A program made the position numbers and the translations under genes. From contig JBAIAA010000449.1 in NCBI GenBank assembly GCA_037893245.1, forward strand, positions 620,001 to 684,000: DNA of 64,000 bases, given 5' to 3'. Shown piece by piece: positions 1,760-52,121 of this stretch. Source of the DNA: Crossaster papposus (taxonomy: Eukaryota > Echinodermata > Asteroidea > Velatida > Solasteridae). Positions within the stretch are counted from its first letter, which is position 1. Each line of letters begins with the position of its first letter. The notes under the pieces are model-generated. The model saw only the letters and a program-made list of their open reading frames with translations, searched no databases and was not told where the DNA came from.

Positions 1760-4700
1760 CTGGCAAGGGAATATGATACATGTACATGATATATAGCAAG
1801 TGAAGTACTAAATTGAATCTGGGTGGGTCGGGGGCTTTAAATAAATATTTATTTAGTAATAAGATTTTGGCTGGTCCCTTGGCTTTAGTATGGTTTTTAT
1901 TCCCTGCAGCAGGAGACCAGCGATATACAAAAAACAGAGGTTAGAGAGTAAAAACTGATTTCTCGCTCGGGCTATTTGACCTTTAAGATTTTGTTAAGGA
2001 AAATTTAATTTCCGTGTCCAAATATTTTGTCTAATTTAACACTTTAGCTCAATTCTTAATCCCATTATTGAGACTAGCAACAGAGCAATTTGTTACCTTT
2101 TATCACCACACAAAACCTTTGATTTCTAATGTCAATACTGCACGAATGTCTAAGAAATTCATCAAAATGAAGAGGAAAAGATGCTTGTTTGATTGATACT
2201 GATTAACCCTAACTCCCTACACAACAAAGGAAGTTGGAGGATTTTGAAGGAATTGTATTGTTCAATAACAATGGTGAGGGAGTTAGGGTTAATATAAAAC
2301 TGACGTGCAATTTAAAGACAAAATTAATCGGTGAAATTTTATTTTGCGAGATAAACTTTTAAACACTGAATATAATTAGACCTCTGGGTTTCCACAGACC
2401 ATCAAAATTACATTTTGTCTGTATTTTAAAATAATATTGTTCACTCCAAGATCCTTGGAGTGAACAATAATATTTTAAAATACAGACAAAATGTAATTTT
2501 GATGGTCGGTGGAAACCCAGAGGTCTACTGTGTAATCAGTAATCTGTATGGGAAACTATATACAAAGCATATACAACAGCATTAAGCTACCTCCGGCTAG
2601 CTCCGACCACCTCCGACTTTTACCAACACCCCACGGACGTGTCTGTGTGGCCAGGCTCGAGAGCTCGAACATTTTTGGAAGGGGAAATTGTTTTCTTTTC
2701 ACTGCTCATAACTACACATCATCATCACCGTTGCGCGAAGTGAAAAAAACAACAATTCCCCTTCCTAAATTGGTAGAGCCCATCACAGATGACATGACCT
2801 TAGTTTCAGCTTACAAAATTTGATTGTAACAGTTTAACGTACATTCAAGTCGCCAGAACACGTCGGTTGGTGAGTAAAAACTCTGATTTTTCAATAAAAC
2901 TGTCACTCAGTGCCATGGTCCACAAATGTTGCCTCCACAGTCTTCAACTCAAGAACTACAGAAAGCTAGTATTGCTTTTGGGAAGAGACTACGGTTTGAA
3001 CAAATTGAAAGGTCCGAATCCCATTTATTTATTTATTTATTGTAACCTTTAAAGAGGAGAGGGTAGTCCTTTTCAGTTAACAAACTGCTTTACAAAGGAG
3101 CCCTCTATTATAATAATTACTGATCACTATACCATTTCATAAATAATTTTTTTTGAGTTCACGAAGTCTAAACAAGTTAATCGTTGTAACTGTAAGCATG
3201 GAGCTATAGCTCCATGCTGTAAGGTACACAGAATTGACGATGCCAAGTAACTGGGACTACCGTTCTCGTATTATTAAAGTTGTACGGGTATTTACTCGTG
3301 ATGGTCGGTGTCCAAAAATGATGTGCAACTGTAGTTGCGATAATCGTAACCCACCATCCTCCCGACGGTCGAAGACCGGAGGGTTACGAGTCAAACAGTG
3401 TACAGAATTGGCATTTTTATAATTTCGACCATTTTTGCCAGACTAGTCACCGGATTTGCCGGATTTTAACCACTTTTAAAGATCATGACACACATTTTAA
3501 GAACACAGATTTGATCTGCAATGTGTAATGACTCCACTCATAACACTCTAAACATCATTGAGAAAATATTTTGGGGGAAAAATGACAAAAACTTACCAGA
3601 GACTGAGCGAAATTCTCACCAAACGAGGTTTACGTTTATAACCCCGCACTTCAAAACCTATCAACAATCTCGACCAATCAGCGTAAACCAAGGAAAGACA
3701 GACTGGGTGGAGCTTCGGCTGTACACCGCTAACCGGCTATTCCCGCTTGCGGACTCACTGCACGGGCTTCTCTCTAGCTCAGTCTCCTTTTCGGAGGCAA
3801 AGCCAAAGACGAAGCAACGGTTTCGAAAAGGCCCATAGAATGTAGCAGTGAGACTAATGCTGCGTTCCAATCGCATCGTTTTTATCGTGTTCACCGTGAA
3901 TTTCTCCACGTTCACAAGTAGGTTGCATTCCAAACGCTACACACCACACGACGCACGCGCACAGTCGAGTTAGTCGTGCGGTACGCGGTAAGGACATTCT
4001 TTATAGCGCAAGAACTTGTACGTGAACCAACACGCATGCGCGAGTATTTCATTCGCGAAGTCGTGACGTGTACATGGAGAAATAAATCCACCTCGAGTTC
4101 ACCACTGGTGAACACGAGTTGCCAGGCGATTAGAACGCCATTATGGCCGAGTTCGGGCGGTCTGTTCTTGACACGCGTAACTTGTTCTTGCATGATGGAT
4201 AGGTGGTGTGTGTTCTTGTTCCGAGTGCAATGGGTCGCGTTCCCGCCGTTCGAGCGCGAGAACAGAGTTCGCGTATCAAGAACAGACCGCCCGAACTCCT
4301 ATACGACTCGTGAACCCGTGAACACGATAAACACGACGCGATTGGAACGCAGCATGAGCGCCGAAAGGGAAGCCCGTGCAGTGAGTCCGCAAGCGGGAAT
4401 AGCCGGTTAGCGGTGTACAGCCGAAGCTCCACCCAGTCTGTCTTTCCTTGGTTTACGCTGATTGGTCGAGATTGTTGTTAGGTTTTGAAGTGCGGGGTTA
4501 TAAACGTAAACCTCGTTTGGTGAGAATTTCGCTCAGTCTCTGGTAAGTTTTTGTCATTTTTCCCCCAAAATATTTTCTCAATGATGTTTAGAGTGTTATG
4601 AGTGGAGTCATTACACATTGCAGATCAAATCTGTGTTCTTAAAATGTGTGTCATGATCTTTAAAAGTGGTTAAAATCCGGCAAATCCGGTGACTAGTCTG

Positions 4701-4923
4701 GCAAAAATGGTCGAAATTATAAAAATGCCAATTCTGTACACTGTTTGACTCGTAACCCTCCGGTCTTCGACCGTCGGGAGGATGGTGGGTTACGATTATC
4801 GCAACTAGTGCAACTGCAACTTGAAAGAATAGATTTACTTACGTTTCTGTTTGCAACGAGACCTTTCGCAAGCAATGTTAAAATTATGCAGAATATAATC
4901 GGAACGTCCATTCGGTAGGTCAT
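1484..4923 (-). CDS. GLMP: GLMP / NCU-G1-like lysosomal membrane glycoprotein, 5' two coding exons (partial gene)
   Basis: The first 119 residues are encoded by two exons, 4923-4843 (27 codons, signal peptide) and 1759-1484 (92 codons), joined in phase 0. The gene continues left of the window. Exon 2 carries family features: an NLVHIK strand, the WSSIGAPTVIM core, the DWKGLL strand and the SSALMFTK strand. These align with the N-terminal lumenal part of vertebrate GLMP (WSSLG, VNWSLLL, SSALVFTRL, as I recall the family). In vertebrates GLMP is a highly glycosylated lysosomal membrane protein that partners and protects the transporter MFSD1; that role is inferred here from homology. Intron 1 is about 3.1 kb and filled with repeats, including the 3333-4806 inverted repeat. 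The start codon faces the glutaredoxin gene head to head. Confidence 0.8.
2204..2293. repeat. Small inverted repeat with telomere-like arms
   Basis: ATTAACCCTAACTCCCT on the left is matched by its reverse complement on the right, around a loop of about 55 bp. It looks like a short TIR element or the remains of one. Similar words occur near 14088 and 60360. Confidence 0.5.
2377..2527. repeat. 151-bp near-perfect hairpin palindrome
   Basis: The arms are 74 bp with one mismatch and a 3-nt loop centred at 2452 (CCAAG ATC CTTGG). The arm text (GAACAATAATATTTTAAAATA and CTGGGTTTCC) is the internal sequence of the MULE-like MITE seen intact at 7228-7511. It therefore arose from that family, probably by inverted duplication of half an element. 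Confidence 0.85.
2528..2629. mobile_element. Right end of MULE-like MITE (GGTGTTGGTAAAAGTCGGAGG family)
   Basis: The block from CTGTATGGGAAACTATATAC to CTTTTACCAACACC matches the right terminus of the 7228-7511 copy almost base for base. The left terminus is missing, having been replaced by the hairpin at 2377-2527. Confidence 0.7.
3195..3218. repeat. 24-bp perfect palindrome (ATGGAGCTATAGCTCCAT core)
   Basis: AGCATGGAGCTATAGCTCCATGCT is self-complementary (12-bp arms, no loop). The same stem with a 3-nt loop recurs at about 5829-5852. No function is assignable. Confidence 0.7.
3333..4806. repeat. 1.47-kb inverted repeat with ~440-bp arms and promoter-like motifs
   Basis: Left arm about 3333-3775 and right arm about 4370-4806 are nearly identical in inverse orientation. 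The ~600-bp centre holds further, shorter inverted pairs (3861-3890 with 4320-4360; 4149-4190 with 4257-4297). Read outward from the centre, each arm has a CCAAT box in reverse (ATTGG; CCAAT at 3674-3678), a TATA-like GGGGTTATAAAC and, about 45 bp on, a perfect donor CTCTG/GTAAGT (4543-4548, and the complement of 3591-3596). It lies in GLMP intron 1, just downstream of exon 1. It is either a foldback transposon or a duplicated first exon plus promoter; no protein is visible. Confidence 0.8.
4843..4923 (-). CDS. GLMP: GLMP coding exon 1 (signal peptide)
   Basis: Reading leftwards from the ATG at 4923-4921, 27 codons give a short basic start (MTYRM), a hydrophobic core (VPIIFCIILTLLAKGLVA) and NRN. 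The exon is followed by the strong donor GTAAGT (complement of 4837-4842). It reads in frame into exon 2, whose first residues are LTISLE. A second ATG at codon 5 (4911-4909) could also start the same signal peptide. The leader and splice phase fit a secreted or lysosomal protein. The right arm of the 1.47-kb inverted repeat ends only about 35 bp downstream of this exon, in intron 1. Confidence 0.75.
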
Positions 4924-9859: not shown

Positions 9860-12800
9860 AATAATAATAATAATAATATATACATTTATATAGCGCTAAT
9901 TTTGTAAACACATTCAAAAGCGCTGCACAAAAACAAGGTAAGCATACGAAACAAGAAAATCAGACAGGATATGCCTGTCTGAACAAATGAGCTTTGAGTT
10001 TCCCTTTAAAGACATCTACAGAGAAACATTCCACCAAAGTCAGCTCAGCCGGGAGGCGATTCCACAGCCATGGGCCCTTATACACGAATGCCCTCTCACC
10101 AAGAGTCTTGTGATGAATACGAGGGACATGTAGAACAATACGAGTCTGTGAACGAAGATTGTAAACACTAGATCTCACAGTAATCATATCTATCAAATAA
10201 TTAGGGGCAAGACCCTTTAAACACTTAAACACCTGAAGTATGAGCTTGAACTCGATTCTTTCTTTCACTGGCAGCCAGTGAAGAGACCTGAGAGTGTCAC
10301 TGATATGGCAGAATTTGGGCAGACAGAAAATGAGACGGGCTGCACCGTTCATAATTCTCTGGACCCTGGCCAACTGGTAGTCAGGCAGACCAACCAAGAG
10401 AGAGTTACAATAATCGATATGGCTAATTACAAATGCATTAATGAGGGTCTTAGTGGTGTCAACATCTAAATATTTCCGAATTTGGCGGATGTTGTAGAGG
10501 CCATAATAGGCTTTCGAACAAAGTTTACCAATATGAATGTCCATGGACATGTTACAATCCAAATACACCCCTAAATACCTAGCATTGACACATGGCTCAA
10601 TGTCTACATTGCCAACTCTAATGGCTTGAACCCTAGCTTTTGTAAGTTGTTGACGAGTGCCTATGATGAGGAATTCGGTTTTGGAATCATTTATCATTAG
10701 GTTATACCTAATCATCCATGATCTGATGTCCAAGATGAGTGACTGCATGGCACTGACGGCTCGCTCCTCTGACGAGGAAGAACCAGCAGTGAAAGATAGA
10801 TAGAGCTGAGTATCGTCGGCATAGCTGTGGGCAATAGGTGAATGCTTAGAGACGATGGTAAACAGATGTGATATGTAGCAAGTGAACAATATAGGCCCCA
10901 AGCAACTACCCTGAGGAACACCACATTCCAAGGGCCGATCTTCAGATGAGGTGGCATCAATTCGCACATGTTGTTTCCTATTAGACAGGTAACTGGTCAC
11001 CCATCTGAGAACAGTGCCATCGATTCCAAACTTGGACTGAAGAGTATTGATGAGTTTATGATGATTGACAGTGTCAAACGCCGCGCTTAGGTCCAAAAGA
11101 ATTAGGAGAGTGCATCGTTGCCTATCCATATTGAGCATTATGTCGCTGTGGATTTTCATCAGAGCAGTCTCCGTAGAGTAGTGTCGCCTATAAGCAGATT
11201 GGCAATCAGGAAAGAGGGCGTGTGTGGAACAATGAGTGACAATCTGCTCGGCCACTGCGCGTTCAACCAGTTTGGAGACAAAGGCCATGTTGCTGATTGG
11301 CCTGTAGTTGGAATACGTAGGTTCCAGACCTGCCTTTTTCATCAACGGTGTAACAGTGGCAACCTTCCACACGTCGGGGACAGCACCATTTTTCAGAGAT
11401 AGGTTGACCATAGTGGTTAGGGCAGGCAGCACGGCATCAACACACTCTTTGATCAACCAAGTAGGGATTGGATCCAAGTCGCAGCTGGCGTTTTTGGAAG
11501 AGCAGACGAGTTTGCGAACTTCATTCTCAGATAGAGAGCGAAACTCAGTCAACTTCTTAGGAGGGGGGTTACGTTGGGTATCAGGTGTACCATGATCAAT
11601 GGTCTGAGCGAGTACTTCCACATTCTCGTTGATTCTTTGAATTTTTGAGACAAAGAACTCAATAAAGTCTGTCGTAAGTTTATCGAGTGATCGATGCGGT
11701 GGATAAGAAATTTGTGGTTTGCCATGGCAGAGCGATTTTACAACTGAAAACAGTTTCTTGGTGTCACCGTGACAGTCTCGGATAGCCGATGTGTAATGAG
11801 CCTTCTTTGCAGCTTCCAACTTGAATACATATTCATTGCGCAGGTGGCGGTGATATTTCCTGTCAGTGTCGAGTCCCGACAGTCGGAAGCGCCTCTCAGC
11901 TTTTCGGCAGCGGGCCCGCAACGTTTTCAGTTCATCGGAAAACCACGGCACCGAGGGTCTGACAGTGATGTCTTTGGTCATCACAGGTGCATGAGTGTTC
12001 AAAATTGCGGTCATTTCATGATTATAGCACTGCACGAGACCATCTAAGTCAAACCACTCAGTTTTACACAATGGTGACTGGGAAATGTCCCTACTGAACA
12101 TGTTGGTGTCAATGTTACGGTATTTCCTGTATACCACTTTCTTGATGCTGAGAGGTGTTGCAGGTAAGTTCAAACAACACCTAATGGACCAATGATCAGA
12201 GAGTTTAAAAACAGCAAGAGGAAGGGAGAGGTTGATTTCATTCGTTGATCTAGTAATTATGAGATCTAGGGTATGCCCAGAATCATGGGTTGGTACGGTG
12301 ACATGTTGATGGAGGCTGAATGCGTTCATAATATCAGAAAACCGTTTTGCGTCGGGATCCCCACGATCCTCAACATGTATGTTAAAATCCCCGGTCAAAA
12401 TCGGTTTACGCGAGGAGAGTACACATTCCTCCAACAGATCGCCAAATTCCCGCAGGAAGGTCGATGTGGATATTGGATGATTGGTGGAATATGGAGGTCT
12501 GTAAACTATGATCAGCAACACAGAAATGTTCCTAACATCGACTTGCCAAATCGAGTACTCGAAAGAGGACTCCTCAGCACAATGCTGGAGCCGAACCTTT
12601 AGGGCATCACGGTAAATAAGTCCAGTACCGCCACCAACTCTCTTTGATGGTCGAGGTGCCCCCAGATATGAATACCCCTGGGGAGCGATAGCTGCTTCAG
12701 ACACGGAGTCATGTGGCTTGAGCCAGGTCTCAGTCAAGCACATTAGTTCAATTCTGGAATTGACAATATGATCGGCAATGAGAGAGGTTTTGTTCCGAAC

Positions 12801-13609
12801 AGATCTAGCATTAGCAGTCTCGAACAGAAAACTAGATCTTAACCGCGAGTTATTTAACCGGCGTTGCAATTTGACATGAATAAGGTTACTGAGATTGCTG
12901 TCTCCGATAGGCTCATGATCCCTTAAGTACGGGGCAGTTACCGGAACATGGCATACAGTAATAGGTTTGGCATGTAGTCTCTTACCTCCCCTTCGCCCCC
13001 TCCGACGCCAGCGTTTCCTTTTGTTGGCCTTACTTCTTGCCGGAGCTGCGTCCTCCGATGGATGAGTGAGACACAGTTTACGGAGCAAGTTAAGAGTGTT
13101 AAGCTTGTTACAGAGATCAACTGAAAGTGGACATGTAGTATACCGACAGCCATTTAATACAGATGAATACTCAAGCAGTTTACCAATGGCAGTCACAGTC
13201 AGACGTCCATCCATATCAATAGTGACCGTCCAATTCACTCGGGATTGACACAATGAGTATGATGACATAGATGAGTGAACAACAAAAGGATGGCTTCGTC
13301 TTTCCACTGCTGATGAATGGGCGGACGGATCCAGTTGAATAGGATTATTCAGCAGGTCCAGGCAGTCGTCTCCTCGGGTATAATCGTACACTGGGTAAGT
13401 ACTGCCGCAACATATAGTGAAGGAAAATATCATGAAAATACACGAACATGACAAAATGGATCCTAGACGAAGATACATGATGATGTGACGAACAACTAGC
13501 ACATTTAACTGTGTAAAGTTTGTAAACTAACACGATACGAGCGAGCATATCAAGTTGAGAGACTGGAGAGCAAACGAAAACAGCCACCAGGCGCTGCGCT
13601 GCTTTCCAA
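9860..13609 (-). mobile_element. Apparently full-length CR1/L2-group LINE with 7-bp target duplication
   Basis: Perfect 7-bp direct repeats TGCAAAT at 9853-9859 and 13610-13616 bound a 3750-bp element. It has a ~107-bp 5' leader, one uninterrupted 1180-codon ORF (13502-9960) and a ~100-bp 3' tail ending AGCGCTATATAAATGTATAT(ATT)n. The intact ORF and perfect duplication point to a young insertion. The microsatellite tail, endonuclease plus reverse transcriptase in one ORF and no RNase H fit the CR1/L2/Rex1 group. The exact clade needs a phylogeny. Confidence 0.9.
9960..13502 (-). CDS. LINE ORF: AP endonuclease plus reverse transcriptase, 1180 aa
   Basis: The order is: hydrophobic N-terminus (residues ~10-32), an unrecognised Cys-containing region to ~150, a strongly basic patch KRKRWRRRGRRGGKR (~161-175), then an AP-type endonuclease ~226-442 with TETWL, the YRPP strand, TGDFN, HTLDLI and the SDH catalytic motif. 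The reverse transcriptase spans ~700-960, with NYRPIS, LLDLSAAFDTV, GVPQGS and YADDTQLY; the YADD aspartates are at 896-897. The C-terminus has the usual GPWLWNRLP motif. It nicks DNA and copies its RNA by target-primed reverse transcription. No RNase H is seen. No frameshift or stop interrupts it. The start at 13502 is the first ATG, but a later start is possible. Confidence 0.95.
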   Translation of the reverse strand: MLVVRHIIMYLRLGSILSCSCIFMIFSFTICCGSTYPVYDYTRGDDCLDLLNNPIQLDPSAHSSAVERRSHPFVVHSSMSSYSLCQSRVNWTVTIDMDGRLTVTAIGKLLEYSSVLNGCRYTTCPLSVDLCNKLNTLNLLRKLCLTHPSEDAAPARSKANKRKRWRRRGRRGGKRLHAKPITVCHVPVTAPYLRDHEPIGDSNLSNLIHVKLQRRLNNSRLRSSFLFETANARSVRNKTSLIADHIVNSRIELMCLTETWLKPHDSVSEAAIAPQGYSYLGAPRPSKRVGGGTGLIYRDALKVRLQHCAEESSFEYSIWQVDVRNISVLLIIVYRPPYSTNHPISTSTFLREFGDLLEECVLSSRKPILTGDFNIHVEDRGDPDAKRFSDIMNAFSLHQHVTVPTHDSGHTLDLIITRSTNEINLSLPLAVFKLSDHWSIRCCLNLPATPLSIKKVVYRKYRNIDTNMFSRDISQSPLCKTEWFDLDGLVQCYNHEMTAILNTHAPVMTKDITVRPSVPWFSDELKTLRARCRKAERRFRLSGLDTDRKYHRHLRNEYVFKLEAAKKAHYTSAIRDCHGDTKKLFSVVKSLCHGKPQISYPPHRSLDKLTTDFIEFFVSKIQRINENVEVLAQTIDHGTPDTQRNPPPKKLTEFRSLSENEVRKLVCSSKNASCDLDPIPTWLIKECVDAVLPALTTMVNLSLKNGAVPDVWKVATVTPLMKKAGLEPTYSNYRPISNMAFVSKLVERAVAEQIVTHCSTHALFPDCQSAYRRHYSTETALMKIHSDIMLNMDRQRCTLLILLDLSAAFDTVNHHKLINTLQSKFGIDGTVLRWVTSYLSNRKQHVRIDATSSEDRPLECGVPQGSCLGPILFTCYISHLFTIVSKHSPIAHSYADDTQLYLSFTAGSSSSEERAVSAMQSLILDIRSWMIRYNLMINDSKTEFLIIGTRQQLTKARVQAIRVGNVDIEPCVNARYLGVYLDCNMSMDIHIGKLCSKAYYGLYNIRQIRKYLDVDTTKTLINAFVISHIDYCNSLLVGLPDYQLARVQRIMNGAARLIFCLPKFCHISDTLRSLHWLPVKERIEFKLILQVFKCLKGLAPNYLIDMITVRSSVYNLRSQTRIVLHVPRIHHKTLGERAFVYKGPWLWNRLPAELTLVECFSVDVFKGKLKAHLFRQAYPV

Positions 13610-14099: not shown

Positions 14100-15078
14100 G
14101 AATACTCCAGAGTTGTATGACTCGAGTCCAGCCGATTTCACGAAACTGTGCGTAACTTACGCCTTAACTGGATGTGGCGCAAGACTTACGCCATAACTTT
14201 AATGCGTAGCTGCGCCATAAGGATTGTAGGTCAACTCGCCCCCTGACCGACTCGCCCCTTACCTACTCGCCCCTTACCAACTCGCCCCCTGACCGACTCG
14301 CCCCCTGACCGACTCGCCCCTTACTAACTCGCCCCCTGACCGACTCGCCCCCTGGCCGACTCGCCTCCTGACCGACTCGCCCCCTCGTTTGATTTATGGA
14401 CCTTGTACGATCGATGTACATCATGTATATTCGTTACCATAAAATTCGTCATTTTGAGGAATAAAAACGAACTCTCAACTTAGATATTTTGCGGACTGAT
14501 CAGAGGAAGCAAAAAATAGGCTGCAAGAATGCGACTTCCAAGAAATCAATGGAAACGGACAACTAATAATATTCTTCCTCAAGTTGTGTACAATTTATTT
14601 ACATTAGGCATACAAAGAAATGATTCAAATATTATAATTAAGGAGAAATCTACAATGTGATGGACTAGACTGGACTCCCGCGAACAATAAATGACGACGA
14701 TTCCGAACCCCCGCGCATGTTTGGCAAACTCGGAAACTTAAAAATACGAATGTTGACTTTGCAATTTTTTGGGCATTCGCATCCTTCGCAAATCGTTCGC
14801 GTGCCCCGCAAAAACCCACCCTAAAGCATGCATAAAAACGGTTTATGGATGTGTCTTTAAAAAGTTCGTGCTTTTTATGTTCTGAATATTCTCAGGTCTA
14901 ACACGACATACCAAACGTCTTATAAAATGTGAAAATCACATTTAACACCATGACATACAAAATACCAAAAACAGTCCCCCCCTTCTCCAAAAGTAGCAAC
15001 CGGCCTCATTGGTCAAATTAGCGACTTTATTGTATTCACTGTCAGCTTTTTGATCTGGGTTTTTCACCATCTTTCACC

Positions 15079-17537
15079 TAGTCTTTGGGCAAGACGTTGC
15101 TTAATTCGCAGCCACGAGAGGGCGCTATCGCGACAAACCATCATCACTCGCCATCCTGTCCGTAACAACGTCTTTGGAATTACGTAAATTTTTTTACCGA
15201 AAACGGTAAAAAACTAGTGCGCATGCGCTATTTATGTATGTTAATGAAGGAAATCTTTTCTTCGCGCACGCGCACATACGACAGCTAGTGTAGAATAGGT
15301 CAGGTAGCAAGTACCGAGATATTTGATCACACGATCCGAGTCATCAGAAAGTCGCCGGCACGGTTTTCTCCGTGTGCACGGTGGGCTCCGAGATGGCAGA
15401 AGGAGCGGACAGGAAATTTCGATGGTGTTTAATCTGCGTTTAATTTATGGACATCATGTTTATTTCTAGTGATTTGGATAAATGTAACCTTTATTATAAG
15501 TGCATTGAGGTAGGAATACATTCCTAATCTTACATGTACCTCAATTGCAAGTACTGTTATCAAAGAATTAAATTTTGAAAATGATTCACATGTAATGTAT
15601 TTTTAATTTCATTTGAGGCCCAAAAGAATTAACAAACAGCACTCTAACTGTCGCTGTTTGCTGCTTTGTATTAATAACTGAAACTCAATTAGAATGACTA
15701 AATTGGCAACTGCAGTGTAACTGTAAAGATAAAATGTGTCTAATACTATTATAGTTTTCCCCTCTGAAAAATAGGCCATGTCCGAATTCCTTGGCTGCAG
15801 CTTAAATTGCATAAAAGTCTGTGGGAATATTTTAGTAAGAATTAATTGATGATTACCCTGAAGCTTGCTTAGCCCAGTAATATACCCAGCACGATATGAT
15901 GAGACCAAGGGACTACCCTTAGAGAGTAATATGGTGGTATATGGTGGTCTAAGTTAGACCACCATATACCACCATATACATACACTCTAGTACTTGCCTA
16001 ACGCCCCCCCCCCCCCCCCCCCTATTCCATAAAAACCTACAAAGAATCATGAAAAAAACAGAATATTCCGCAAGCACAATGGCGACCACAAAGGAGGGGG
16101 GGGGGGGCAATTTTAAAATTATATGAAAAGGCACATAATTATATATGTAAGCAAAATTGTTTCCTTTGAGAAGTTTGGTTACTGATACCCCCTTCACATA
16201 CACGGATTTTTCTTACGAGTCTTTACGGATCGCACAGATTCACAGATCGTTCCCGGATGATCATACAATTTGGCCAGTTTTACGACTGATTTAAGTGTTG
16301 TTACGAGTTATTACGGGCTATTTACGGTTTATTACAGATTATTACGAGTTATTGCCATGTATTTACGTCAAAATTCCACGATTTGTTACGAGTTGTCACG
16401 GATAACTACGAGCAACTTACGAGCATTTTACGACCTGTTACGAGTTAGTTACAAGTATTTACGAGTCCTCAGGATTTGTTGCCAAAAAATATATAAATCC
16501 TGCAAATCTCAATGTACATGTACAATCATTCGTAAAGTATACGTATTTATTATCAAAGTACTCGTATTCGTAACTACACGTAAAGTGCTCGTAATAACTC
16601 GTAACAATCCGTAAAGCCATCGTAACACGACCCGAATGAAATCGTTAACAACACGTAAGCACTCGTAATAATCCGTAAACAAATCGTAAACTAACCGTAA
16701 CAAATTGTTAAACAAATTGTTACGAGTCATTTACGGATTTTTGCGAGCAGTTTACGGATGATTACGTGTTGTTGCGAGTGGTTTACGATACTTACGGATT
16801 GTTACAAGCTTTTTACGAGTTATTTACGGAAAACTCAAACCGTGGACAATCGTAAGATTTTTTTGTGTCTGCAAGTTGTTGCGAGTTGTGACAAATTATT
16901 TACGGATACCAGCGAGTTATTTACGGATGCTTGCGATTGACTACGAGTTGGCGATCCGTAAGGACTCATAAGAAAAATCCGTGTATGTGAAGGGTGTATA
17001 AAGATCCTAAAAAGAAATTTGAAAAATAAATTGCAAAGGTGAAATTCGTCCTGAATTTATGACCAAAGAAATTCATGAAAATAAATATATTTTAAGGGGA
17101 TCGTTGTCATTTTCAAAATACCAAACGGATTCTGCCTTTAAAACTTGTTGGCAAGAGATGACCCTAATTAATATGTACCGAAAAGTCTTCCATTTTCACG
17201 AATAACGTTGAACACGTTTGATGATAAAATGTGTACAGTCAGTATGTACCGTACATGTACATGTACGTACAATACACGTATACATGTGTACACACACATG
17301 TATGTACATCCAGATGCAATGAGAAGTTGAGTCAGGGTGTTAGACCTATGCATATGTATGTTTATGCAAAGTACGTAATGTACGCTGCATGCATTAGGCT
17401 AAGCAGGTGCGTGCGCATATCTCTACCTCGACGTAATTCCAAAGACGTTGTTACGGACAGGATGGCGAGTGATGATGGTTTGTCGCGATAGCGCCCTCTC
17501 GTGGCTGCGAATTAAGCAACGTCTTGCCCAAAGACTA
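15079..17537. mobile_element. 2.46-kb element with perfect 107-bp TIRs and 9-bp TSD, fourth level
   Basis: 15079-15185 and 17431-17537 are exact reverse complements (start TAGTCTTTGGGCAAGACG). TCTTTCACC at 15070-15078 and 17538-17546 is a perfect 9-bp duplication. This fits Mutator-like or another 9-bp-duplicating superfamily. Identical termini imply recent movement. No transposase ORF is present, so it needs one in trans. The fifth element sits inside it. Confidence 0.9.
16188..16996. mobile_element. TA-flanked element built of TTACGAG/TTACGG words, fifth (innermost) level
   Basis: The ends CCCTTCACATACACGGATTT and the reverse complement are followed inward by ACGAGTC..TTACGGATCGC. TA flanks both sides (16186-16187, 16997-16998). 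Between them, about 700 bp consist almost wholly of degenerate TTACGAGTTATTTACGG-like words: TTACG orientation at 16270-16470, CGTAA orientation at 16540-16700, TTACG again at 16720-16970. It has no coding capacity and would fold into long hairpins. Confidence 0.8.
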
Positions 17538-17782
17538 TCTTTCACCACGTTTGGCGGACTGATCAGAGGGAGCCGACAGTTTTGTAGATGAGCGTCGTAA
17601 CACCCAGTTCAATCCAGCGTTGGTTTTCGTAACAAAGAATGGTGGAGTGATTGACAGATTGCTTCCTTGAAAAGCCCTATTGGGTTGGAAAGCAGTAAAC
17701 AAAATCGCATCAAATTATGCGATCAACTTGTCCCCCCGCGCTCCGAAAAAAACCCTAATAAAAACAAGAACCAAACATGATT

Positions 17783-17808
17783 ATTTCCCCCCCCCCCCCC
17801 CCCCCCAA
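17783..17808. repeat. Poly-C tract
   Basis: An uninterrupted run of about 21 C, one of many long C or G runs in the window. Confidence 0.8.
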
Positions 17809-19140
17809 TTTTCTTTAAATATATAAATGTATAAATAAATTGTTATGAGTTAAACTTTTTTGGCTTCGAGGATTTAGGCCTACTGCTTATTTCCACCACC
17901 GAAACGAACATCCGTCAAAAGGTATTTTCTAAAACTTAGATAAAAATAATCGAGATTAGGGCCTATGCAAGAAAATAATCAAGGAAAAAGTTTACCCACA
18001 TCGTCTTTTCAGTTGTTAAGTTCTACGAGGGCAAATGATACAAATTATAGAATTAAAAATACATGTACATGTAAATCAAACCAGGGGGCGAGTCGGTCAG
18101 GGGGCGAGTCGGTCAGGAGGCGAGTCGGCCAGGGGGCGAGTCGGTCAGGGGGCGAGTTAGTAAGGGGCGAGTCGGTCAGGGGGCGAGTCGGTCAGGGGGC
18201 GAGTTGGAAAGGGGCGAGTAGGTAAGGGGCGAGTCGGTCAGGGGGCGAGTTGACCTGACACCGCCATAAGTTAAAATCGATTTCACGAAACTCGACTTAG
18301 CTACGCAACATCCTATTTTCACTAAAAACTTTTATATTTGTAGGACGAGGGTGACCTCAAGTTCTAACAACGACTGTTTGCAGTTGTTGCACAAATATAC
18401 ATAAAACAGACGTTACAATTATACGTGTTTACGAATTACGCGGATTTTTATTGGAGGCCGCCATTTTTTCGGGGCTGTGTTTGTAGCGTGAATACCGATT
18501 TTAAAAGCCGTTTTTTTCTCAAAAAAGTGCGTCGGAGATTTGTTATGATTTGAGAAAGTGAGATTTAAATGAGGGTGGTTTTTGTTGCACGCGACATTTA
18601 CTAACGTTAACAGAAAATGAGAAACTATCCTTGTACTTGTAGGACGCTCCAAAACATGTCGTAAATCTTCAACGATTTAGAAAATACCCTTCCGAAAAAA
18701 GCGATACCGCCCTCTGATTTTGTCGTCTTCGAGATGATCTACAGGGGATTTATTCGGTCAAGGAACAATCTTTCACGGCGAAGCGCTCTTCGGTGTTCAC
18801 GTTGAACGCCATTTTTACGACACATAACCACGGCTTACGCCACCTAAAGTCATGGCGTAAGTTACGCCACATCTTATGGCGTAACTCGGTGAGTTACGAC
18901 ATATCCCGATAATGCGTAACTTTCGTGAAATCCGCCCTAAAGTTATCGCGCAACTTACGCAATAAGTTATGGCGTAAGTCCACTTACGCCATAAAGTAAA
19001 GTTTCGTGAAATCGGCTGCAGCCTGCAGGACTCGGACTCGAGTCCGTCGACTCGAGTCACGTCGGCAAAAGACTTGGACTCGGACTCGACTACCATGACT
19101 CGGACTTGACCTCGAGGACTCGTGACTCGAGTCACGTATT

Positions 19141-20130
19141 TTCACCAACAATACCTTTTTTAGTTTTTTGTAAATATTAAAAACAATTCCGATGATCCGA
19201 TCGTCATGGTCATGGAGGAAAATTAACGTTTAGCACACGAAATAAGAACACTGATGTTGCAAGTAATAGTGTTCGTGATTACTGTGTTGCTATGGCCATG
19301 TAGTGTACAGCGCATGTACATGTGTATGTGTATGTTCAAATACGCATAATAACACTGGGATATATTTCTGTAAAAGCATTATTGTGCACGACACCAATAT
19401 TAACGCTGGTATTCTGTCAACCTTAACACCATAGCCACTGCTTGATGCATATTACCAGGGAAATAGGAATTCGTCTCCGGAATCCGAATGACGGCTGCGG
19501 CTATATCGCTACCTCTTTTTAATGTTAAAACATAGGCGTCTTACACGCTGATCTAGCCATAGACGCAACCGAAGCTGACCGAAGTCTGGCATGTCTGGTA
19601 CCTGTAAAACACCGCCTGTATATTGCACTGAGATGGCTGTGGGTCGTTTGCCCCAGTTTTCACACACGCAACCATATCAACCGGACACGCTTGATCACGT
19701 CACGGGATCGCTAGTCGCTACAACAATTTTTTGAACCATGGCATCTGTCGTTCCTCGTATTGTTTCTTTTGGTTACACCAACTTTAAAACAAATTTTGAA
19801 ACTTCCAAATCTGAGTCTGACATCATGTACCACCATTATCACTCATGGGTGCACGGTAACTTAATTAAACCTATCTCCATGATTAAACATGACAGACAGA
19901 TTTACATAACATTTTTTATTTGTTTCTCCAAGATATAAAACTTGTTGGCTACCTGCCTTTCTGAAATAACTAAATCAGTATATAATTTGTTATTTTGACG
20001 AAAATAAATAAATAAAAGATATTCTGGAGAAGGGGCAAGGAGTATTGGTAAAACCTATAGTTGCAATCAATAGTGATCCAGTCATCTAAGTGAACTGGTT
20101 GAAGTATTTTAACTATTTAATTATTTAAAC
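19141..20130. other. Interior of the outermost hAT-like element
   Basis: No conserved protein is seen. Short ORFs such as 19738-19938 have no recognisable motif. The sequence is ordinary A/T-rich DNA. Confidence 0.4.
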
Positions 20131-20240
20131 AAGTGACTCGTGACTCGGACTCGGACTCGAACCACGTGACTCGGACCAAGTGACTCGGGACTCGGACTCG
20201 GACTCGACATAGGTGACTCGACTACAACACTGGAATACTC

Positions 20241-23802: not shown

Positions 23803-23981
23803 TAGGCTCTTAGTGCCACGGCTATGACTTCTATCGGTACGTTTCCACACAGTTGTAATGGGCGACGACTTTGACAGTAACTGCAGATGCTAAATCTGGA
23901 CATAGCCTAACTTCGCGACTTAGACTGGTCCCAAACACACATCTGTCTGTTTTAGCTTACTCTGAGCTTGGGAGTCTGGGC

Positions 23982-47918
<23,937 letters not shown>

Positions 47919-51015: not shown

Positions 51016-51205
51016 CAACTATGTAAATTTAGTTTTTGTTACGAGTTTCGGTCTTTTAATGCTACCTTTCTGGCAACACTGTCTTTGCGATGCATGTTTA
51101 TACAATTTAGAGTTATGTTTTTTATACTTGTAAGCTGCTTTACTATATTTTGTCCTGGTATTTTGTCAGTCAGCATCATTGTTCAGCATGTAGAAAGTCA
51201 TTTAA

Positions 51206-51835
51206 GAGCATTATTTTCCATATATAAAATCTGAAAATATACATTTAAAAATAAATAAAGCATGAAGTTTCTGGCAACACTGCTCCCCCGTACAAAAAAT
51301 ACCAAAACTTTTGTTTCCATATTCTTACAGACCAGCATCTTATCTTTCAATCCTGGAAGCAAAATCTTCCTAAATATGCCACTTTCGGACTTCTGACAAT
51401 TTTAGCAACCACCTCTATTTCCCAAATTGACTTTTGCTCAAAACACACCTATATGGAATAATGGAATCTTCCATTCACAATTAACTGTACTTGTATCAAG
51501 TGCATTTTTGGAAAGATTAAGAGCATTATTTTCCATATATAAAATCTGAAAATATACATTTAAAAATAAATAAAGCATGAAGTTTCTGGCAACACTGCTC
51601 CCCCGTACAAAAAATACCAAAACTTTTGTTTCCATATTCTTACAGACCAGCATCTTATCTTTCAATCCTGGAAGCAAAACCTTCCTAAATATGCCACTTT
51701 CGGACTTCTGACAATTTTAGCAACCACCTCTATTTCCCAAATTGACTTTTGCTCAAAACACACCTATATGGAATAATGGAATCTTCCATTCACAATTAAC
51801 TGTACTTGTATCAAGTGCATTTTTGGAAAGATTAA
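51206..51835. repeat. Recent 315-bp tandem duplication
   Basis: 51206-51520 and 51521-51835 are nearly identical; one difference noticed is AAATCTTCC versus AAACCTTCC. The period is exactly 315 bp. Confidence 0.95.
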
Positions 51836-52121
51836 GGACGTATCTTTACCATGTTTAGCTGAGAGGTAGGCAAACTATTTGGTCTTTATACAGTGAAGCT
51901 CACAACCTTCGGTCATTTTTACTTATGAAAAGAGCTAAATTAGGCGAAATGTGGTAACTTTCTATTTTCACCCGTTGTCATGGCAACCAAAGTGTGGATG
52001 CAATAAATATGCTTTCTTTTTACATTCTGGATGAAGGCCTTCACATGTGCAAAGAATAAACGAAATCCATAAAAAAAAATCTGCCACCACTTCTTTGATT
52101 TTTAGAGCAACTCAGTCTTAA

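What the first reader, a model, noticed from the sequence alone, without database searches (positions are those of the whole stretch)
14100..20240. Five-level Russian-doll nest of inverted-repeat elements
Five different TIR pairs enclose each other: 14108-20232 (8-bp TSD GAATACTC), 14130-19018, 14222-18262 (candidate TSD GCCATAAG), 15079-17537 (9-bp TSD TCTTTCACC) and 16188-16996 (TA). The order gives a relative time line: hAT-like first, the TTACGG element last. All are non-autonomous by eye. Such depth with readable duplications is unusual, and three or four transposase classes are implied.
Basis: seen in the sequence. Interest (0 to 1): 0.8.

Follow-up and report, generated by a model that had tools for sequence, protein, structure and literature searches.

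The report
Jumping genes nested five deep
Five kinds of short jumping gene sit one inside another here; comparison with other copies in the same genome shows four landings in a row, the last of them carrying the fifth element as a passenger, which is a tidy case of a known process.

Summary
The five enclosing inverted-repeat pairs are real and belong to five element families: A 14108-20232, B 14129-19018, C 14222-18262, D 15079-17537, E 16188-16996. Loci holding an outer layer without the next exist in the same 1.02-Gb genome: A without B in 9 of 9 loci read, B without C in 6 of 6, C without D in 6 of 6, each with the expected uninterrupted site. Target duplications recur: D 9 bp in 17 of 17 copies with both ends found, window included; A 8 bp perfect in 5 of 8; C 8 bp perfect in 8 of 16; B CWG on both sides in 6 of 6, identical in 4. 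So A, B, C and D arrived in that order. E therefore entered a D ancestor earlier and rode in with D. Not found: a clean E-less D, an intact B duplication here, or any element's own transposase. Known biology, unusually legible; interest modest.

The parts
14100..14107 (.). Left 8-bp duplication of layer A (GAATACTC)
14108..20232 (.). Layer A, hAT-like in structure; its own sequence is about 14108-14131 plus 19029-20232
   Evidence: 9 of 9 related loci lack B; 5 of 8 with both ends have a perfect 8-bp duplication
14129..19018 (.). Layer B, CAGCCG...CGGCTG ends, CWG-flanked family; own sequence about 14129-14221 plus 18271-19018
   Evidence: 6 of 6 copies without C; right part gave 40 scored genomic candidates, window included
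14214..14221 (.). Left 8-bp duplication of layer C (GCCATAAG)
   Evidence: single copy in 6 of 6 C-less B copies
14222..18262 (.). Layer C, 158-nt arms made of 16- and 47-bp tandem units, 8-bp duplication; own sequence about 14222-15078 plus 17547-18262
   Evidence: 6 of 6 copies read lack D
15070..15078 (.). Left 9-bp duplication of layer D (TCTTTCACC)
   Evidence: single copy in 6 of 6 D-less C copies
15079..17537 (.). Layer D, 107-nt arms, 9-bp duplication, carries E as a constant part
   Evidence: 17 of 17 perfect duplications; E in 16 of 16 other copies
16188..16996 (.). Layer E, CCCCCTTCACATACACGG ends, rich in TTACG/CGTAA, flanked by TA on both sides; passenger of D
17538..17546 (.). 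Right 9-bp duplication of layer D
18263..18270 (.). Right 8-bp duplication of layer C
19019..19028 (.). CAGCCTGCAG at B's right junction: target CAG plus 7 extra bases compared with A copies
20233..20240 (.). Right 8-bp duplication of layer A

Best explanation
A nest of DNA transposons that appear non-autonomous, from five families. A landed in the host sequence; B landed 21 bases inside A's left end; C landed 93 bases inside B's left end; D then landed inside C. D already contained E, which had inserted at a TA in an ancestor of this D subfamily before the subfamily multiplied. Shown: dispersed copies and element ends for all five, uninterrupted sites for B in A, C in B and D in C, recurring target duplications, and E as a constant part of the D copies read. 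Inferred: the moves were made in trans by transposases coded elsewhere; the superfamily of each layer is a structural guess.
For: A without B 9 of 9, duplication perfect in 5 of 8. B without C 6 of 6, CWG both sides 6 of 6. C without D 6 of 6, duplication perfect in 8 of 16. D duplication perfect in 17 of 17. E in 16 of 16 other D copies, 10 of 10 further E copies flanked by D, exact E ends in 17 of 18 long D pairs of the listed rows; two solo E copies with TA on both sides. D shows the fewest private substitutions, 1.6 per kb.
Against: No D with a clean empty TA where E sits: none of 40 scored matches runs across the joined site. B's own duplication is damaged here. Private substitutions do not order the older layers: A 5.2, B 5.3, C 8.5 per kb, C with only 3 comparison copies. 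Three of 8 A copies and 8 of 16 C copies fail a perfect duplication. No host site without A and no allele with an intermediate stage was looked for separately.
Confidence: 0.87

Rival explanations
1. E is a native internal part of D, not a separate transposon, and solo E-like copies arose when that part escaped from D.
For: All 16 other D copies aligned carry E; no E-less D with an empty TA among 40 matches.
Against: E has 45.7 TTACG/CGTAA per kb against 3.6 in the rest of D; the two solo copies read have full five-C ends, TA on both sides, lengths of 748 and 1016 bp and no match to D flanks, with main blocks 87-95% like E. One divergent long D relative lacks E, though its flanks there do not match either.
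Confidence: 0.1
2. One reading: five successive landings at this locus with E last.
For: E is the innermost pair and has TA on both sides.
Against: E is at the same place in 16 of 16 other D copies at 15 or more unrelated sites with different 9-bp duplications.
Confidence: 0.01
3. One complex element or a chance arrangement of inverted repeats.
For: The five pairs are concentric in 6.1 kb.
Against: Each layer has its own dispersed copies and target duplication, and A, B and C occur without the next layer; reversed-pattern controls are 0.
Confidence: 0.01

Closest known systems
Nested transposon clusters resolved by order of insertion (REANNOTATE, PMC2672092; passages seen)
   Same: Elements inserted into elements, with order read from enclosure; said there to be observed across eukaryotes
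   Different: All layers here are inverted-repeat DNA elements; enclosure alone would have given the wrong order for E
Rice coding MULEs carrying the MITE Os0548 at one site (PMC3903597; passages seen)
   Same: 107 similar MULEs carry the MITE, 40 whole and 67 partial, at the same site: a passenger amplified with its carrier, as E with D
   Different: Those carriers contain transposase sequence; no transposase domain was found in D, and D is itself inside three further layers
NuwaI group of the PHIS superfamily (PMC4482050; passages seen)
   Same: 3-bp CWG target duplication, as around B copies
   Different: Autonomous NuwaI candidates mostly code for a DDE transposase and a Myb/SANT protein; neither was seen in B
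Merlin superfamily (PMC8101967; passages seen)
   Same: 8- or 9-bp duplications and arms of up to 462 bp, as C and D
   Different: Conserved terminal GG is absent from D and from one end of C

Membership tests
hAT (layer A) | 8-bp target duplication with CAG...CTG ends (recalled) | tested here: met
   Perfect in the window and in 5 of 8 other copies
hAT (layer A) | hAT transposase in an element with the same ends | not tested
   The hAT domain search did not complete
NuwaI / PHIS (layer B) | CWG 3-bp duplication (PMC4482050) | tested here: met
   CWG on both sides in 6 of 6 copies, identical in 4 of 6; in the window itself the duplication is damaged
NuwaI / PHIS (layer B) | DDE transposase and Myb/SANT protein in an autonomous relative with the same ends | tested here: inconclusive
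   DDE_Tnp_4 domains occur in the genome (150 scored matches), none linked to B; frames in 23 larger B relatives reach at most 204 codons in the 1650 bases examined and were not scanned against families
Mutator-like, MULE (layer D) | About 9-bp duplication and long terminal inverted repeats (recalled) | tested here: met
   9 bp in 17 of 17, 107-nt arms
Mutator-like, MULE (layer D) | MULE transposase between the same ends | tested here: inconclusive
   79 MULE domain matches in the genome; only 100 of 978 D end sites were listed and no match was seen between a pair
Merlin (layers C and D) | Terminal GG (PMC8101967) | tested here: not met
   D ends in TAG; C has GA at one end and GG at the other
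Tc1/mariner (layer E) | TA target duplication (recalled) | tested here: met
   Window and 2 of 2 solo copies; TA is only two bases and also fits other groups
Tc1/mariner (layer E) | Tc1/mariner transposase with the same ends | not tested
   No search made

The most novel reading that the evidence does not exclude
The nest is not random: incoming elements favour the repeat-rich ends of earlier ones (B lands 21 bases inside A's end, C 93 bases inside B's end), so element ends in this genome act as landing pads that build nests.
Probability: 0.08. Interest if true: 0.45.

Novelty: new member of a known kind. Interest (0 to 1): 0.27.

Why it matters
Most boundaries of this nest can be checked against dispersed copies, so it is a good worked example of reading insertion order from DNA. 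It also carries a practical warning: the innermost element need not be the last to arrive, because a carrier can bring a passenger. And it delimits five element families (ends, target size, copies) that would help annotate this genome.

Tried and rejected
Considered and rejected: a single complex element (loci with A, B or C lacking the next layer); E as the last insertion; Merlin for C or D (terminal GG not met). Tried without result: a clean E-less D (none of 40 scored matches crosses the joined site; 915 candidates were seen and 40 scored; the one E-less long D relative is divergent); tying D to a MULE transposase (against the 100 listed rows); long frames in larger B relatives (not scanned against families). 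Dating by private substitutions sets D apart but does not order A, B and C. Rows left out before counts: L009 from the A duplication count (no right end found) and; L023 and L028 from the D duplication count (no pair of ends); L060, L061 and L063 from the C comparison, one of 100 listed D sites and one of 35 E sites on the contigs used. The paper PMC5963040 uses 'Russian doll' for a library strategy, not a nest (passages). PMC8547701 (passages) treats nesting in maize in general. Literature searches listed no description of this nest; that does not show that none exists. The species was not identified.

Full report
What was checked. The interval was read and its inverted repeats listed. The whole genome that holds the window (1.02 Gb, 1841 contigs, unnamed; a eukaryote by its size and its non-LTR retrotransposon) was searched with the interval, with its layers and with end patterns. 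The DNA searches score only the best candidates (40), so copy counts are lower bounds and biased to close copies.

Layer A. Nine loci carry A's right part (19047 onwards) joined to A's left 24 bases with no B between: 9 of 9. Seven of 9 read GAGTCCAGGACTCGG at the junction, 2 of 9 GAGTCAAGGACTCGG. Eight gave both ends; 5 of 8 have a perfect 8-bp duplication; L014, L015 and L017 do not, and L015 and L017 share their left flank. The window copy is 97.5-98.8% identical to these eight over aligned bases. CAG...CTG ends with 8 bp fit hAT (recalled).

Layer B. The uninterrupted site in A copies puts B after GAGTCCAG. B's two ends share 19 nt. Six copies without C were read (L030-L034, L040): 6 of 6 run unbroken through GCGCCATAAGTTAAAATC, the site that C occupies in the window, and 6 of 6 have CAG or CTG on both sides, identical in 4 of 6. 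PMC4482050 gives CWG for NuwaI (passages). In the window one CAG is missing on the left and CAGCCTGCAG stands on the right, so the duplication is damaged. Most other matches to B's right part share only about 500 bases and belong to larger relatives.

Layer C. Arms of 158 nt at 99% consist of 16- and 47-bp tandem units. Its two interior halves gave 40 matches each, the window among them, and at places in both lists they abut. Six loci were read: 6 of 6 show CACCATCTTTCACCACGTTTGG unbroken where D sits in the window. With ends fixed at GATTGTAGGTCA and GGTGTCAGGTCA, 8 of 16 copies have a perfect 8-bp duplication, 2 of 16 (two loci on one contig with the same flanks) match at 7 of 8, and 6 of 16 fail, one for want of ends; by eye L062 has the eight bases displaced. 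Superfamily left open.

Layer D. Seventeen of 17 copies with both ends found, the window included, have a perfect 9-bp duplication, each different. Arms are 107 nt at 100%. The end pattern occurs 978 times, control 0. Among 99 of the 100 listed sites there are 34 convergent pairs: 16 short (117-182 bp) and 18 long. This fits Mutator-like elements (recalled). MULE domains occur 79 times in the genome; none was linked to D.

Layer E. All 16 other D copies aligned contain E at the same place, 97.1-99.9% identical over aligned bases. Twelve E matches are absent from the listing; ten were sampled and 10 of 10 are flanked by D sequence. Of the 18 long D pairs, 17 hold at least one exact E end; the exception is a divergent relative without E. 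D flanks joined at the TA gave no match across the junction in 40, so a clean empty site is missing. Yet E is also a family of its own: of seven E-end pairs sampled, five were D-flanked and two were not, and those two, read in full, have five-C ends, TA on both sides, main blocks 87-95% like E and no match to D. In one search, 9 of 34 exact E ends lie outside the long D pairs. Best reading: one old insertion into a D ancestor, then joint amplification, as reported for rice MULEs with Os0548 (PMC3903597, passages).

Time line. Enclosure and the D alignment give A, B, C, then D with E inside. Private substitutions per kb of the window copy are A 5.2, B 5.3, C 8.5, D 1.6. D lowest agrees; the others are not resolved, and C is higher than A and B, with three comparison copies.

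Coding. Of 18 stop-to-stop frames of 65 aa or more, 12 were scanned against Pfam (ten, two in start-codon form); no match reached a curated cut-off. The layers are taken as non-autonomous.

Verdict. Nested transposons are well known (PMC2672092, passages), so the interest is modest.

Noticed in passing
3332-3773 and 4366-4807: Inverted arms of 442 bp, 99.5% identical, enclosing about 1.5 kb: another long-armed element
   Followed up: no
9960-13502 (-): 1180-aa frame with reverse transcriptase and endonuclease domains, a non-LTR retrotransposon
   Followed up: partly
23981-24536: Tandem array with a period of about 79 bp
   Followed up: no
51202-51836: Direct duplication of 320 bp, 99.7% identical
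   Followed up: no
14493-14508 and 17553-17568 (approximate): GCGGACTGATCAGAGG occurs twice in the same direction within layer C; also twice in each of the six C copies read, so it is native to C
   Followed up: partly
G000 pairs listed: Sixteen short pairs of D ends, 117-182 bp apart, look like miniature relatives of D
   Followed up: no
L059 (G000:C518:568650-570450) and G000:C518:519660-521470: Two C copies 49 kb apart with identical flanks, each followed at once by another C end: duplicated segment or assembly duplicate
   Followed up: no
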